DNA of 64,000 nt, taken from the IMG/VR virus record IMGVR_UViG_3300044732_001653, positions 1-64,000 of that record; one strand, written 5' to 3'. This stretch comes from a virus. The notes under the pieces were generated by a model, which worked only from the letters and a program-made list of their open reading frames with translations, was not told the origin of the DNA and did no database searches. The number at the start of each line of letters is the position of its first letter. The stretch's first letter is position 1. A program made the translations under genes and the position numbers. Below are positions 639-59,938 of the stretch, one piece after another.

Positions 639-2150
639 ATGCAGCCATTCGTCGACATCCGGCGGTTCATTCCGCTCCTGAAGCACACCCGCGGCGACTT
701 CGCCGGGCGGAACTTCCTGCTTGAGGCGTGGCAGGACGCCTACCTCAACGACCTCTTCAACACGAAAAACCCCGACGGGACGAGGCAATACAGGACTTCC
801 CTGCTTGCCCTGCCGCGGAAGAACGGCAAGAGCCAGATCGCAGCCGCGATCGGCTTGTACATGGCCTTCTGCGACGACGAGGGCGCCGAGGTGATCGTGG
901 CGGCCGGCGACCGCTCCCAGGCGTCGATCCTCCACGACGCCGCCAAGCAATTGCTGGAGTCCTGCCCTGCCCTGGCCCGCAAGGCCAAGGTCTACCGAAA
1001 CAGCATCGTCGTCCCGAGCCGCAACGCCAAGATGCTCTGCATCTCCAGCGAGGCGGGGACCAAGCACGGCTACAACCCGTCGTGCGCCCTGATCGACGAG
1101 TACCACGTCTTCCCCGACCGCGAGCTTGTCGACGTCCTTGAGACCGGCATGGGCGCTCGAAAGCAGCCCCTCACGATCTACATCACCACGGCCGGCACCG
1201 ATATGCAGGGGCCGTGCTACAAGGACTGGAAGCGGGCCGAGAAGATTCGCGACGGTGCCCTCGTCGACCCGACGTTCCTGCCGTGCATCTTTGCCGCCGA
1301 CCCCGCCGATGACCCGTTCGATGAGGCCACTTGGAAGAAGGCGAATCCGAACTACGGCGTCACGCTCAAGCCGGAATACTTCCACCAGTTCTCGGCCAAG
1401 GCGCAGCAGTCGCCGTCCGACGAGACGGTTTTCAGGACGCTCCACTTGAACCAGTGGATGTCCTCGACGACGAAGTGGTTGAAGGCCGGCGCCTTTGAGA
1501 ACTGTGCCGAGCAGCCCCGGCCGGGCGGCGAGCGGATGTGCTACTGCGGCATCGACTTGGCCTCGACGTTCGACACTACCGCGTTCGTGGCGATCTGGCC
1601 CGACGACGACGGAACCTACGACATCTACGCCCACTTCTTCATCCCCGAGGAGAACGCCGCCAAGCGAGCCAAGGAGGACCGCGTGCCTTACCTCGAATGG
1701 GCCAAGGCCGGATTTGTTACACTTACGGGAGGGGACGTGACTGACTACGACATCGTGCGGGATCACGTTCTAGCTTTCTGCGAGAAGAACGCAGTCAGGG
1801 GCGTGGCTATCGACCGATACAACGCCACGCACCTGACTACCCAGCTAGACAACGAGGGGGTCGTGATGAAGCCCTTCGGTCAAGGCTTTGTGTCGATGAA
1901 CGCCCCGACGAAGCTCCTTGAAACCCTGGTAATTCAGGGTCGATTGCGGCACGGCGGCAACCCGGTTCTTCAGTGGCAGGCAAGCAACGTCCAGGTGAAG
2001 ACCGACGACGCGGGGAACGTGAAGCCGACGAAGAAAAACAGCAGTTCGACTGGCCGCATCGACGGCATGGTGGCCTTGATCATGGCCTTGGGCATCGCCT
2101 CGGGCGAGGCCAGGAACGAGCCCGACGAACCAATGCTCATGGTGTTCTGA
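639..2150 (+). CDS. terL: Terminase large subunit
   Basis: ATPase-nuclease motor that pumps DNA into the prohead. The protein is 503 aa, normal for the family. The N-terminal ATPase has an adenine/Walker A segment LPRKNGKS (residues 58-65) and Walker B CALIDEYHVF with D153-E154. The C-terminal RNase H-like nuclease has the acidic segments CGIDLASTFDTTAF, GVAIDRYNA and RIDGMVALIMA. Starts at ATG 639 and stops two bases before the portal gene. The short region between terS and terL is rich in TTCGCGAA-type palindromes. Confidence 0.95.
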   Translation: MQPFVDIRRFIPLLKHTRGDFAGRNFLLEAWQDAYLNDLFNTKNPDGTRQYRTSLLALPRKNGKSQIAAAIGLYMAFCDDEGAEVIVAAGDRSQASILHDAAKQLLESCPALARKAKVYRNSIVVPSRNAKMLCISSEAGTKHGYNPSCALIDEYHVFPDRELVDVLETGMGARKQPLTIYITTAGTDMQGPCYKDWKRAEKIRDGALVDPTFLPCIFAADPADDPFDEATWKKANPNYGVTLKPEYFHQFSAKAQQSPSDETVFRTLHLNQWMSSTTKWLKAGAFENCAEQPRPGGERMCYCGIDLASTFDTTAFVAIWPDDDGTYDIYAHFFIPEENAAKRAKEDRVPYLEWAKAGFVTLTGGDVTDYDIVRDHVLAFCEKNAVRGVAIDRYNATHLTTQLDNEGVVMKPFGQGFVSMNAPTKLLETLVIQGRLRHGGNPVLQWQASNVQVKTDDAGNVKPTKKNSSSTGRIDGMVALIMALGIASGEARNEPDEPMLMVF

Positions 2151-55692: not shown

Positions 55693-55864
55693 CGAGCAGT
55701 TTTCATACGGCAATGACTCAACGCCGTTGATGGCTTACGTCCCCGAGGCCCCCCCGAGTCACTGGGGGAAGATCACGACCGACCGCAAGGGCTCCGAGGC
55801 TTACACCAAGTTTCTGCTGGCCGCAAAGAAGAAAAACGAGGAGAAGAACGATGGGCGAAAGTGA
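55658..55864 (+). CDS. Hypothetical protein
   Basis: 68 aa. MDSLNPNLNPSDEQFSYGND; C-terminal AYTKFLLAAKKKNEEKNDGR basic. Overlaps neighbours. Unrecognised. Confidence 0.55.
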   Translation: MDSLNPNLNPSDEQFSYGNDSTPLMAYVPEAPPSHWGKITTDRKGSEAYTKFLLAAKKKNEEKNDGRK

Positions 55865-56216
55865 AGTCAAGATTCTCACCCCCGAGGGTGGCGTGATGAC
55901 GGTCAAGGGGACGGTCATCCCCTCCGAGGTCGATCTGAACGACGAGCGGTTCGGTGCCGGCGGGATGCCGATCCTTGAGCAGCTTCGGCTCCTGGCCCAG
56001 TGGGGTCCGCTCCTCGGGCGGCTCCAGACGATCGCCATGGCGCCGACTCCTCGGGATCGGGCTCTTGCGGTCCTCGACGCTCTGGAGTTCGCGGCCGGCA
56101 AGACCTCGACGACCATTGACGACGACGCCATCGCTCACCTTGAGGCCATCCTCAAGACCGAGGAGGGCGCTGCACTGTTCAATTGGGTCGTCGCCTTGGT
56201 CACGGTGCGGGCATGA
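55851..56216 (+). CDS. Hypothetical protein
   Basis: 121 aa. ESEVKILTPEGGVMTVKGTV at the start, then helical LEQLRLLAQWGPLLGRLQTI. Overlaps both neighbours slightly. No known family. Confidence 0.58.
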   Translation: MGESEVKILTPEGGVMTVKGTVIPSEVDLNDERFGAGGMPILEQLRLLAQWGPLLGRLQTIAMAPTPRDRALAVLDALEFAAGKTSTTIDDDAIAHLEAILKTEEGAALFNWVVALVTVRA

Positions 56217-57027: not shown

Positions 57028-58029
57028 ATGGCTGTCTTCAATCCCCTCGACGCATACAACAATGGGCTCCAGGGCGCGCGGGTCGACCCTCGCGCCGACG
57101 AGATGCTCATCGACCTCGTCATGCGTACCGGCGGCGACCCTGACGGCGGGCGCGTCGCGTACAACTGGGGTCTTGAAGGCGCCGGGAAGGACAAGCTCTC
57201 GCTGCTGTTCCCGTATGTCGAGCAGTGCTACCCCGGCGCGTTTCCAGGGCCGACGCAACTCTGGGGCGACTGCACTGCGGCTGCTGCGATTCGCGCGGCC
57301 CTCGGTTCGCTGTGCGTCGAGGTAGTCCTCGGCAAGCCGGACGAAGAGACAGGCCACACCGAGGAAGCCCCCGAGGTCTCTGAGGTTGCTCGCAAGAATT
57401 GTCCGATCAGCCAAGAGAGCGTTTTTGCGTATCGCGGTTTCGCGGATGATGGATGGTCGTGCGGCGCAGCGGCACAGACGATCATGGAAAAGGGCTTCCT
57501 GCTTCGTCAGAACTACCCCGACCTCGGTATCGACCTCACGAAGTACACCGAACAGACGATCCGCATCGGTGGCGCCAAGCGACCCAGCGCGGCGTTTGAG
57601 GCCGAGAGCAAGAAGCATCGCGTCCGTACCGTGACGGTGATCGACGACGTCGCGGCCATCGGCGACTACATCGCCTCGGGTTTCGCGGTCGTCTTCTGCC
57701 ACTCGCTCAAGTGGTCTTCGGTGCGGAATGAGGACGGCTACTCGCCGGTCGTGCCCGGCGAGTGGATGCACTCGCAGTCGATCCAAGGGTGGGACTCCCG
57801 CCCGGTGACGATCAAGAAGTACGGCGAGCCGCTCGCGCTGGTCTTGAACCAGTGGGCGAAGTGGAACACGGGGCCGCGTCGGATTCCGGGGACGGACATC
57901 GACATCCCCGAGGGCTCCTACTGGACGAAGTCGAGTTCGTTCCGCAAGGCTCGCTGCATCGCCTATTCCTCGATCCTCGGGTGGCCGCGGAAGAAGCTGC
58001 CTGACTATGGGTTTGCGGGGCACATCTGA
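57028..58029 (+). CDS. Papain-like cysteine peptidase
   Basis: 333 aa. Probable active site: Cys82 in QLWGDCTAAAA (cf. papain QGSCWAF), His248 in WMHSQSIQGWD, and Asn274 in LVLNQWAKWNTG followed by PEGSYWTKSS, the C..H..N order of the C1 fold. No signal peptide. It lies after two small membrane proteins. It could be a lysin for a protein-rich host envelope or a virion protease; both are inference. Confidence 0.72.
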   Translation: MAVFNPLDAYNNGLQGARVDPRADEMLIDLVMRTGGDPDGGRVAYNWGLEGAGKDKLSLLFPYVEQCYPGAFPGPTQLWGDCTAAAAIRAALGSLCVEVVLGKPDEETGHTEEAPEVSEVARKNCPISQESVFAYRGFADDGWSCGAAAQTIMEKGFLLRQNYPDLGIDLTKYTEQTIRIGGAKRPSAAFEAESKKHRVRTVTVIDDVAAIGDYIASGFAVVFCHSLKWSSVRNEDGYSPVVPGEWMHSQSIQGWDSRPVTIKKYGEPLALVLNQWAKWNTGPRRIPGTDIDIPEGSYWTKSSSFRKARCIAYSSILGWPRKKLPDYGFAGHI

Positions 58030-58553
58030 TGACCACCCTACAAGTCATCGCCGCCGTCTTCACCGCCGAACTCATCACCGGAATGGTGCATTGGTGGGAG
58101 GACCGCTACGGCAATCCTGATTGGCCTGTGCTTGGAAAGTACGTCATCCGACCGAACATCGAGCATCATGCTAATCAGACCGCCTTCACCAGGGGTGACT
58201 ACTGGACTCGCAACTGGACGGTCCTCGTCCCGTCGCTCACGGCCGCCGCGATCGCTGCGGCCTTCGGCCAGTGGTGGCTCGCTCTGGTTGCCGTCATCGT
58301 CAGCCAGGGCAACGAGATTCACTGCTGGAGTCACCAGCGGTGCAGTCGGCCCATCCGGGGGTTGCAGCTTCTGGGCATCCTCCAGAGTCCAGAGCAGCAC
58401 GCGAAGCATCACGCCCAGCCGTTCGACAGGAACTACTGCGTGATGACCGACGCGACGAATCCGACGCTCCAGGCGATCCGGTTCTGGCAGGGGCTGGAGT
58501 GGTGCGTGGCGTTGTTTGGTATCCGTCCGAGAGTCGAGCGGGAGGTGGCGTGA
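58029..58553 (+). CDS. CarF/TMEM189-type lipid desaturase
   Basis: 174 aa. The Kua family pattern with eight His: His21 in GMVHWWEDRYG, His46-47 in EHHANQT, His98 and His102 in NEIHCWSHQ, His124, 127 and 128 in EQHAKHHAQPFDRNYC, plus hydrophobic segments. Such enzymes introduce the vinyl-ether bond of plasmalogens (plasmanylethanolamine desaturase). TGATG overlap with the peptidase. May remodel host lipids; substrate in this host unknown. Confidence 0.8.
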   Translation: MTTLQVIAAVFTAELITGMVHWWEDRYGNPDWPVLGKYVIRPNIEHHANQTAFTRGDYWTRNWTVLVPSLTAAAIAAAFGQWWLALVAVIVSQGNEIHCWSHQRCSRPIRGLQLLGILQSPEQHAKHHAQPFDRNYCVMTDATNPTLQAIRFWQGLEWCVALFGIRPRVEREVA

Positions 58554-59299
58554 TGGCGATTGTTGACGAGCAAGACAACTTCGGAAAGCGGATCGCCGAG
58601 GTGCTGGGGCTCAGTGCCGGGATGGTCGTCGGCATCGACATTCGTGTCGAGCCGGGCAACTTCGTCACGGCCACGGCGAAGATTTTCCTCAAGGAGAATC
58701 AGGTCAAGGGCCTCGGGGTCATCTTCGACGAGATGAAGTTCGTCGGGATCAAGAAGACACCGGAGTCTGCCGCTCCGGTTTTCATGCCGCCCTCGCCCGT
58801 GCCACCGACAGGGCCGGTGACGTCTCCCGTGTACTGGCCGTGCGAGACCAGGAAGTGGTTTTCGTGGCTCCCTGTCGTTCTCCTCCTCGTCGCCGGTTGC
58901 CGCCCGGCGTCCCCGCCCCCGCCGGACCTTCGGCCGTGGATCGCCGTCACTGGGGTCTACGCCCTGATGGCTCCCGCGATCGCCCCGCTCCCGCCGGCCC
59001 CGGCGCCGGGAGCCCCATGCGAAAACTGCAATGGGAAGGGAACGGTCGGCGACGGCGTCGTCGGCAAGACCTGCCCAATCTGCGGCGGCACCGGGGTAAC
59101 GCCATCCAAGGCCCCAGCAGCCCCGCTGCCGCCCGTTCCCACGGCCGGGGTGTCCGTAGACCCTCCGGCCCGTTCCGCCGCTCCGGGGGCCTCTGGTTCC
59201 CTCACACGGGGCCTGCCCGTTTCCACGGAGGAGGCCCCCACATTCCGAATCGTCTGCGAGGATGGAGTATGCCGGAAGATCAGAGTTTTGCCCCGCTGA
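58553..59299 (+). CDS. Protein with internal lipobox-like TM and DnaJ-like zinc finger
   Basis: 248 aa. Residues 1-75 (MAIVDEQDNFGKRIAEVLGL onwards) form a small domain. Near residue 105 a TM stretch WLPVVLLLVAGCRP ends like a lipobox (LVAGC). Then CENCNGKGTVGDGVVGKTCP and CGGTG form a DnaJ-type zinc finger inside a Pro-rich region. A fusion of unrelated pieces, or two adjoining genes. Function unknown. Confidence 0.5.
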   Translation: MAIVDEQDNFGKRIAEVLGLSAGMVVGIDIRVEPGNFVTATAKIFLKENQVKGLGVIFDEMKFVGIKKTPESAAPVFMPPSPVPPTGPVTSPVYWPCETRKWFSWLPVVLLLVAGCRPASPPPPDLRPWIAVTGVYALMAPAIAPLPPAPAPGAPCENCNGKGTVGDGVVGKTCPICGGTGVTPSKAPAAPLPPVPTAGVSVDPPARSAAPGASGSLTRGLPVSTEEAPTFRIVCEDGVCRKIRVLPR

Positions 59300-59622
59300 A
59301 GCGGTACGTCCGCGAGCGGGGTGGCTTTCGCCTCGCCACCAGGGCGCGGTTCAGGGACCAGTGCGTCGATTGGGCTGTGGCCGACTGGCCGACCGGCGAA
59401 CTGCCGGGTGAGATCGAGGCCCGCCTCCGCGAGCGGCTGGTCGCCCGCACCGAGGAGCGGTACGGCTCGATCCTCGCCACCCTGCTCATCGGCATCGCGG
59501 TCAATCTGATCTGCCGGCTGATCGTCGAGTGGTGGCTAGCCCGCCAGCTTAACCGGACCCTCATGGCAACGTGGCACTATGCCGAAACGAATCCCCCAGT
59601 TCCGCCCTCCGACCGCCCGTGA
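59269..59622 (+). CDS. Membrane-anchored protein, holin-like candidate
   Basis: 117 aa. ERGGFRLATRARFRDQCVDW at the start, helical part, then a TM ILATLLIGIAVNLICRLIVE near residue 70. Upstream of the HNH gene. One TM fits spanin or holin, not proven. Confidence 0.55.
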   Translation: MPEDQSFAPLKRYVRERGGFRLATRARFRDQCVDWAVADWPTGELPGEIEARLRERLVARTEERYGSILATLLIGIAVNLICRLIVEWWLARQLNRTLMATWHYAETNPPVPPSDRP

Positions 59623-59938
59623 CCGGCTCCCGGCCCGCCCCCGCGACGATGACCGGCTGTCGTCGTCGGCCCGCGGCTACGGGTCGGCAGCGTGGCAGCG
59701 GGTCCGTCTCGCCGTGATCGCCCGCGACCAGGGAGCCTGTCGCCTTTGCGGCCTGCTTTGCTGGGGCGAGGGTGAAGCCCATGTCGATCACATCGATCCC
59801 AAGCGCCCAGGCGAGCCGGCCGAGGCCACGCCGATGGAGGGCTTGCGGCTCCTGTGCCGCAAGTGCCACTCCAGGCATGGCCTCAAGTGGTCGGCTCGGC
59901 CGGGAGGGGATTCTTCCGAGGGCGACCACGACGCTTGA
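59579..59938 (+). CDS. HNH endonuclease, packaging-type
   Basis: 119 aa. SSSARGYGSAAWQRVRLAVI opens the domain; CRLCGLLCWGEGEAHVDHID is the first metal-binding half, and LRLLCRKCHSRHG the second. On a circular map it lies upstream of terS, only the leftward operon between, and small HNH proteins of this type are often needed beside the terminase for packaging-site cutting. Overlaps the previous gene by 44 bases and the convergent gene by 56 bases. Confidence 0.82.
   Translation: MPKRIPQFRPPTARDRLPARPRDDDRLSSSARGYGSAAWQRVRLAVIARDQGACRLCGLLCWGEGEAHVDHIDPKRPGEPAEATPMEGLRLLCRKCHSRHGLKWSARPGGDSSEGDHDA

What the first reader, a model, noticed from the sequence alone, without database searches (positions are those of the whole stretch)
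58029..58553. CarF/TMEM189-type lipid desaturase in a phage
Seen: a 174-aa membrane-type protein with eight histidines placed as in the Kua/plasmanylethanolamine desaturase family. Known: CarF makes vinyl-ether lipids in bacteria and animals. Inference: a phage auxiliary gene that alters host or envelope lipids, perhaps for lysis timing or against oxidation. It is next to a peptidase and small membrane proteins.
Basis: partly seen in the sequence, partly recalled or inferred. Interest (0 to 1): 0.7.

Follow-up and report, generated by a model that had tools for sequence, protein, structure and literature searches.

The report
Phage lipid desaturase, third subfamily
A phage carries a small membrane enzyme of the family that makes plasmalogens in animals, but it belongs to a separate, mostly viral branch that lacks the plasmalogen-specific residues, so it probably modifies host membrane fats in some other, unknown way.

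Summary
The 174-aa gene at 58029-58553 (+) is real and belongs to Pfam PF10520 (Lipid_desat, E 1.5e-39). It lies on a 71.5-kb phage record with terminase, portal and major head genes. All eight catalytic histidines and the essential Asp are present. The model is confident (pLDDT 93); its best solved match is the yeast fatty-acid hydroxylase Scs7p.

"CarF/TMEM189-type" is too specific. Two other residues that matter for plasmanylethanolamine desaturase are replaced: mouse H131 is Gly56, F118 is Asn43. An AU test rejects grouping with CarF-like proteins; the curated CarF model scores 86 bits against a cut-off of 500.

The protein belongs to a virus-dominated clade: 103 IMG/VR contigs carry relatives, against 8 loci in about 85,000 prokaryote species. 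In 48 distinct viral sequences the eight His, the Asp and Asn43 never vary; dN/dS is 0.06-0.32. Asn43 aligns with the first His of the HX2HH motif of fatty-acid hydroxylases. Neighbours are often exported proteins, often joined by overlapping stop/start codons.

Best reading: an oxygen-dependent di-metal lipid desaturase (or hydroxylase) that remodels host membrane lipid late in infection. Substrate and benefit are unknown.

The parts
58029..58553 (+). PF10520 lipid desaturase gene, 174 aa
   Evidence: purifying selection
58089..58103 (+). His21-xxx-Asp25 (mouse PEDS1 H96 and D100; HX3-4H motif of fatty-acid hydroxylases with the second His replaced by Asp)
   Evidence: PMC8960569
58155..58169 (+). 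Asn43-x-x-His46-His47 (mouse F118, H121, H122). The Asn is invariant in 48 viral sequences and aligns with the first His of HX2HH
58194..58196 (+). Gly56 in place of the ninth His of PEDS1/CarF (mouse H131, CarF H113)
   Evidence: PMC9131029
58320..58334 (+). His98-xxx-His102 (mouse H187, H191)
58398..58412 (+). His124-xx-His127-His128 (mouse H215, H218, H219)
57028..58029 (+). upstream gene, 333 aa, joined to the desaturase by a TGATG overlap; papain-like Cys/His/Asn pattern only, no family hit
   Evidence: structure model failed
58553..59299 (+). downstream open frame, 248 aa, starts in a TGATG overlap with the desaturase stop; CxxC-type motif, no Pfam family
59579..59938 (+). HNH endonuclease
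711..1691 (+). terminase large subunit match (phage hallmark)
1973..3799 (+). portal protein (phage hallmark)
6061..7464 (+). major head protein (phage hallmark)

Best explanation
The gene encodes a minimal PF10520 membrane enzyme with an eight-His di-metal site. With O2 and host-supplied electrons it oxidises a chain of a host membrane lipid, most likely by desaturating an acyl chain of an intact phospholipid, as the plant relative FAD4 does, rather than by making the vinyl-ether bond of plasmalogens. It belongs to a virus-dominated third branch of the family, marked by an invariant Asn where the FAD4 and PEDS1 enzymes compared in PMC8960569 have Phe. It is probably made in a late operon and changes the packing or fluidity of the host membrane during assembly and lysis. 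Shown by computation: family, complete His/Asp set, fold, viral clade, purifying selection, coupled neighbours. Inferred: catalytic activity, di-iron, late expression. Guess: substrate, bond position and benefit.
For: PF10520 at 1.5e-39. Eight His and Asp25 invariant in 48 distinct viral sequences and in the 41-row alignment with bacterial homologues; in mouse PEDS1 each is essential (PMC8960569). AlphaFold2 pLDDT 93.2, pTM 0.87. Best solved match is the Scs7p hydroxylase, Z 6.7 over 141 residues; the next unrelated fold has Z 3.2. Profile match to fatty-acid hydroxylases, probability 91%, E 9e-7, with the His motifs in register. dN/dS 0.06-0.32. Distinct viral clade, 95/83; AU test rejects grouping with CarF-like proteins, p 4e-8. 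An alphaproteobacterial homologue lies beside an acyltransferase gene (L098), and a patatin-type phospholipase gene overlaps the viral gene by 4 bases in L012.
Against: No activity is known to me for any member of this branch or for its alphaproteobacterial kin. Phe118, whose loss leaves 6% activity in mouse PEDS1, is Asn here. The protein lacks the N-terminal ~60 residues of CarF. No ferredoxin (PF00111) or cytochrome b5 (PF00173) was found in 25 viral records, so the electron donor must come from the host or be of another kind. Metal geometry was not measured. Foldseek alone gave no significant PDB match; the Scs7p match rests on VIA-align, and a Z of 6.7 is middling.
Confidence: 0.7

Rival explanations
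1. True CarF/TMEM189 plasmanylethanolamine desaturase: makes vinyl-ether lipids in the infected host.
For: Same Pfam family and the same eight His plus Asp. NF045946 matches at E 3.6e-24.
Against: Ninth His is Gly and Phe118 is Asn in the window protein; the Asn is found in all 48 distinct viral sequences and none of them has that His. 86 bits against a cut-off of 500. AU test p 4e-8 against grouping with CarF-like proteins. The alphaproteobacterial homologue without that His failed to replace CarF (PMC9131029). The reaction also needs alkyl-ether phospholipid in the host, which is unknown here.
Confidence: 0.1
2. Fatty-acid or lipid hydroxylase rather than desaturase: the Asn at the first position of HX2HH shifts the site towards hydroxylation.
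For: Best solved fold is the Scs7p 2-hydroxylase. Weak Pfam FA_hydroxylase match, E 1e-4. Profile match with N43 at the first His of HX2HH.
Against: PF10520 scores far better than PF04116 (136 against 23 bits). Desaturases and hydroxylases of this superfamily share one fold, so the fold does not decide.
Confidence: 0.2
3. Structural or regulatory reuse: a membrane protein of the lysis region (holin-like or anti-host) that kept the fold but not the chemistry.
For: Lies in coupled operons near small membrane proteins and packaging genes in several records. The protein is shortened relative to CarF.
Against: Nine catalytic residues invariant over sequences down to about 42% identity, with dN/dS well below 1, is not expected if catalysis were lost.
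Confidence: 0.07

Closest known systems
PEDS1/TMEM189 and CarF (plasmanylethanolamine desaturase, PF10520, NF045946)
   Same: Pfam family, all eight essential His, essential Asp, membrane protein
   Different: Ninth His replaced by Gly, Phe118 by Asn; lacks the N-terminal ~60 residues; different clade
Plant FAD4 (phosphatidylglycerol delta-3-trans desaturase, PF10520)
   Same: Eight His plus Asp; also lacks the ninth His
Alphaproteobacterial PF10520 proteins (Hyphomonadaceae and others, L087-L093)
   Same: 36-44% identity, same Asn, Gly at the ninth-His place; nearest cellular relatives
   Different: Chromosomal where checked, function unknown; outside the viral clade in the tree
Cyanophage and cold-water virus fatty-acid desaturases (vFAD; PMC7300359, and Roitman et al. 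2018 as cited there)
   Same: Virus-borne lipid desaturase, proposed membrane-fluidity role
   Different: Stearoyl-CoA-type desaturases (linked to 4ZYO in PMC7300359); I recall them as PF00487, not PF10520
Giant-virus lipid desaturase (Harvfovirus, BFVD A0A3G5A308)
   Same: Similar fold, TM 0.66, named lipid desaturase domain protein
   Different: Eukaryotic giant virus, 22% identity; residues at the diagnostic sites not examined
Erythrobacter phage vB_EliS-L02 UIS25202.1
   Same: 39-41% identity, all eight His, same Asn; beside the portal gene; annotated 'hypothetical protein'
   Different: Long branch, place in the tree unsure

Membership tests
PF10520 Lipid_desat (Kua family) | profile match above the gathering score over most of the domain | tested here: met
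   136.3 bits against 26.4, profile 2-174 of 175
PF10520 Lipid_desat (Kua family) | eight essential His plus essential Asp | tested here: met
   residues named in PMC8960569
PEDS1/CarF plasmanylethanolamine desaturase | ninth His (mouse H131, CarF H113) | tested here: not met
   Gly56; no His in any of 48 distinct viral sequences
PEDS1/CarF plasmanylethanolamine desaturase | Phe118 (6% activity when Ala) | tested here: not met
   Asn43, invariant in the viral clade
PEDS1/CarF plasmanylethanolamine desaturase | NCBIfam NF045946 equivalog cut-off of 500 bits | tested here: not met
   85.6 bits
PEDS1/CarF plasmanylethanolamine desaturase | groups with CarF-like sequences in a tree | tested here: not met
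   AU p 4.4e-8; the reference set was Actinomycetota proteins with Phe, some with the ninth His, plus one phage, as M. xanthus CarF itself could not be fetched
PEDS1/CarF plasmanylethanolamine desaturase | makes vinyl-ether lipid | not testable with these tools
   needs lipidomics
FAD4-type PF10520 desaturase | eight His, no ninth His, Phe118 kept | tested here: not met
   first two met; Asn43 in place of Phe (conservation in FAD4 from PMC8960569)
Membrane di-iron fatty-acid hydroxylase/desaturase superfamily | fold and His motifs | tested here: met
   Scs7p Z 6.7 over 141 residues, next unrelated 3.2; His motifs in register in profile alignment
Membrane di-iron fatty-acid hydroxylase/desaturase superfamily | His side chains arranged around two metal ions | not testable with these tools
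Phage auxiliary metabolic gene | on a phage genome with hallmark genes, intact and under selection | tested here: met

The most novel reading that the evidence does not exclude
Phages hold a third functional class of Kua-family lipid enzymes, with an Asn-containing metal site and its own lipid product, used across unrelated phages from about 36 kb to 390 kb to remodel host membranes before lysis; cellular members of this class would be the minority.
Probability: 0.35. Interest if true: 0.75.

Novelty: new variant of a known kind. Interest (0 to 1): 0.52.

Why it matters
The phage and virus desaturases I found described in papers are of the stearoyl-CoA or acyl-lipid type. This is a different enzyme family, seemingly unreported in phages (no PHROG matched; none of the papers searched pairs it with phages) and found in over 100 viral contigs. 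It names a small, testable enzyme that could change host membranes during infection, and warns that calling it a plasmalogen enzyme would go beyond the evidence. The Asn/Phe/His difference at one motif position offers a clean handle on how this enzyme superfamily chooses its reaction.

Tried and rejected
CarF-type reading: rejected on residues, curated cut-off and AU test. A search for CarF-type genes in viral contigs with an actinobacterial/huge-phage alignment found none; only the 595-kb phage LR756511 has the CarF-like residues. Electron carriers Fer2 and Cyt-b5 on the same viral records: none. Plasmid relatives: none. Conserved single neighbour: none; neighbours vary. The upstream window gene as a peptidase: no family hit, no viral relatives found, structure model useless at pLDDT 29. 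Host from similarity of portal and head proteins: only distant hits, under 40% identity, no host call. PDB sequence searches gave nothing, and the Foldseek PDB search had no significant match.

Full report
THE OBSERVATION. The window holds an open frame from ATG 58029 to TGA 58553 on the + strand, 174 aa. It has exactly eight histidines. Pfam PF10520 (Lipid_desat, the Kua/TMEM189 family) matches at 136 bits, E 1.5e-39, over almost the whole model. The gene starts inside the stop of the gene before it (TGATG at 58027-58031), and the next frame starts inside its own stop in the same way. The window is part of a 71,517-base virus record with a terminase match at 711-1691, portal, head protease and major head protein.

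CATALYTIC RESIDUES. Published mutagenesis (PMC8960569) names eight essential His (96, 121, 122, 187, 191, 215, 218, 219 in mouse PEDS1), essential Asp100, and Phe118 (6% activity as Ala). A ninth His, 131, is found in PEDS1 and CarF but not in plant or alphaproteobacterial proteins, and tested proteins of the latter two kinds failed to replace CarF in Myxococcus (PMC9131029). P0001 has all eight His and Asp25, but Gly56 for His131 and Asn43 for Phe118. In 48 distinct viral sequences (the CarF-like 595-kb phage apart) the eight His, Asp25, Asn43, Glu24, Arg61 and Asn95 never vary, and position 56 is never His. Phe118 is one of the residues that PMC8960569 treats as totally conserved between PEDS1 and FAD4. 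So the Asn marks a branch distinct from both tested functions.

STRUCTURE. AlphaFold2 with a 41-row alignment of viral and bacterial relatives gave pLDDT 93.2, pTM 0.87. Among solved structures the best match by VIA-align is yeast Scs7p, the fatty-acid 2-hydroxylase, Z 6.7 over 141 residues, with unrelated folds at 3.2 and below. Foldseek alone was not significant. Among predicted viral structures the only strong matches are one unnamed protein and a Harvfovirus lipid desaturase. I aligned the 41-row profile with 17 fatty-acid hydroxylase family proteins from bacterial genomes: probability 91%, E 9e-7, with the histidine motifs in register. In that register Asp25 sits at the second His of HX3-4H and Asn43 at the first His of HX2HH.

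RELATIVES. A single-sequence scan of IMG/VR found 2 relatives. A five-row alignment found 103, of which 80 were kept. The same alignment over about 85,000 prokaryote species found 8 loci, mostly Alphaproteobacteria. The two patterns favour this branch, so the ratio describes the branch, not the whole family: with the Pfam model, 10 of 246 genomes from the phylum of an Actinomycetota MAG and 4 of 240 from the class of a Hyphomonadaceae MAG carry PF10520 proteins above the cut-off. In a maximum-likelihood tree 31 viral sequences form one clade (95/83) next to the alphaproteobacterial ones; the cultured Erythrobacter phage gene (called hypothetical) has a long branch and an unsure place; Actinomycetota proteins, all with Phe and some with the ninth His, are apart. 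Forcing the window protein together with the CarF-like set is rejected, p 4e-8. The CarF NCBIfam model gives 86 bits against a cut-off of 500; an actinobacterial protein gives 197. The true M. xanthus sequence could not be fetched, so the comparison set is a stand-in.

PHAGE CONTEXT. Of 25 viral records tested, including the window's, 12 have a terminase match and 6 a portal of one PHROG; many are fragments. The record sizes run from 16 kb to 390 kb (595 kb with the CarF-like phage). In several records the desaturase lies within a few kilobases of terminase or portal. In at least a dozen it overlaps the next open frame by four bases. In L056, L065 and L078 it stands alone against the strand of its neighbours. 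Neighbours change but are often exported or envelope-type proteins: trypsin-like peptidases just upstream in L072, L077 and L079, CAP proteins in L035 and L012, a thioredoxin-like exported protein in L002 and L043 (my sequence reading; Pfam E 0.04 only), a patatin-type phospholipase overlapping the end in L012, a PQ-loop membrane protein in L022. An alphaproteobacterial genome has an acyltransferase gene next to its copy (L098). dN/dS between close viral pairs is 0.06 to 0.32.

HOW IT MOST LIKELY WORKS. Shown: family, complete set of metal-binding residues, fold, clade, selection, gene coupling. Inferred: two iron atoms activate O2 next to the membrane and remove hydrogen from a lipid chain, using host electron carriers, as neither of two common kinds was found on the viral records. 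Guess: the lipid is an intact phospholipid acyl chain and the benefit is a membrane better suited to late infection or lysis. Hydroxylation is the main rival reaction; plasmalogen formation is unlikely but not excluded.

NOVELTY. Virus-borne desaturases of the stearoyl-CoA or acyl-lipid type are known. PF10520-type genes exist in giant viruses. I found no paper that pairs PF10520, Kua, TMEM189 or plasmalogen genes with phage metabolism, and no PHROG describes it. The library lacks most subscription papers. I rate it a new variant of a known kind.

Noticed in passing
L005:5983-6441 (LR756511, 595-kb uncultured phage): Unannotated PF10520 gene with both CarF-type residues (Phe and the ninth His), lone + gene among - strand genes: a better candidate for a phage plasmalogen desaturase than the window gene.
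   Followed up: partly
L012:6513-7376: Patatin-like phospholipase gene overlapping the end of the viral desaturase by four bases.
   Followed up: partly
OL955261.1 144-1403 (W01): Terminase match in Erythrobacter phage L02 reads through five in-frame stops (1 TAG, 4 TAA): intron, insertion or alignment artefact.
   Followed up: no
L022:6522-6797: PQ-loop (SemiSWEET-size) membrane protein coupled to the viral desaturase gene.
   Followed up: no
window:22632-23750: Minor tail protein with a PVTSVAGRTGAVT...DVSG motif repeated many times, a possible site of length variation.
   Followed up: no
window:55968-56062: ARAGORN tRNA-His call lies inside a likely coding frame (55851-56216); probably false.
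   Followed up: no
L002:6929-7852, L043:4933-5862, L072, L079, window:58553-59299: Exported neighbours with 'CxxGxC' type motifs look like Planctomycetota proteins to me; host guess only, untested.
   Followed up: no
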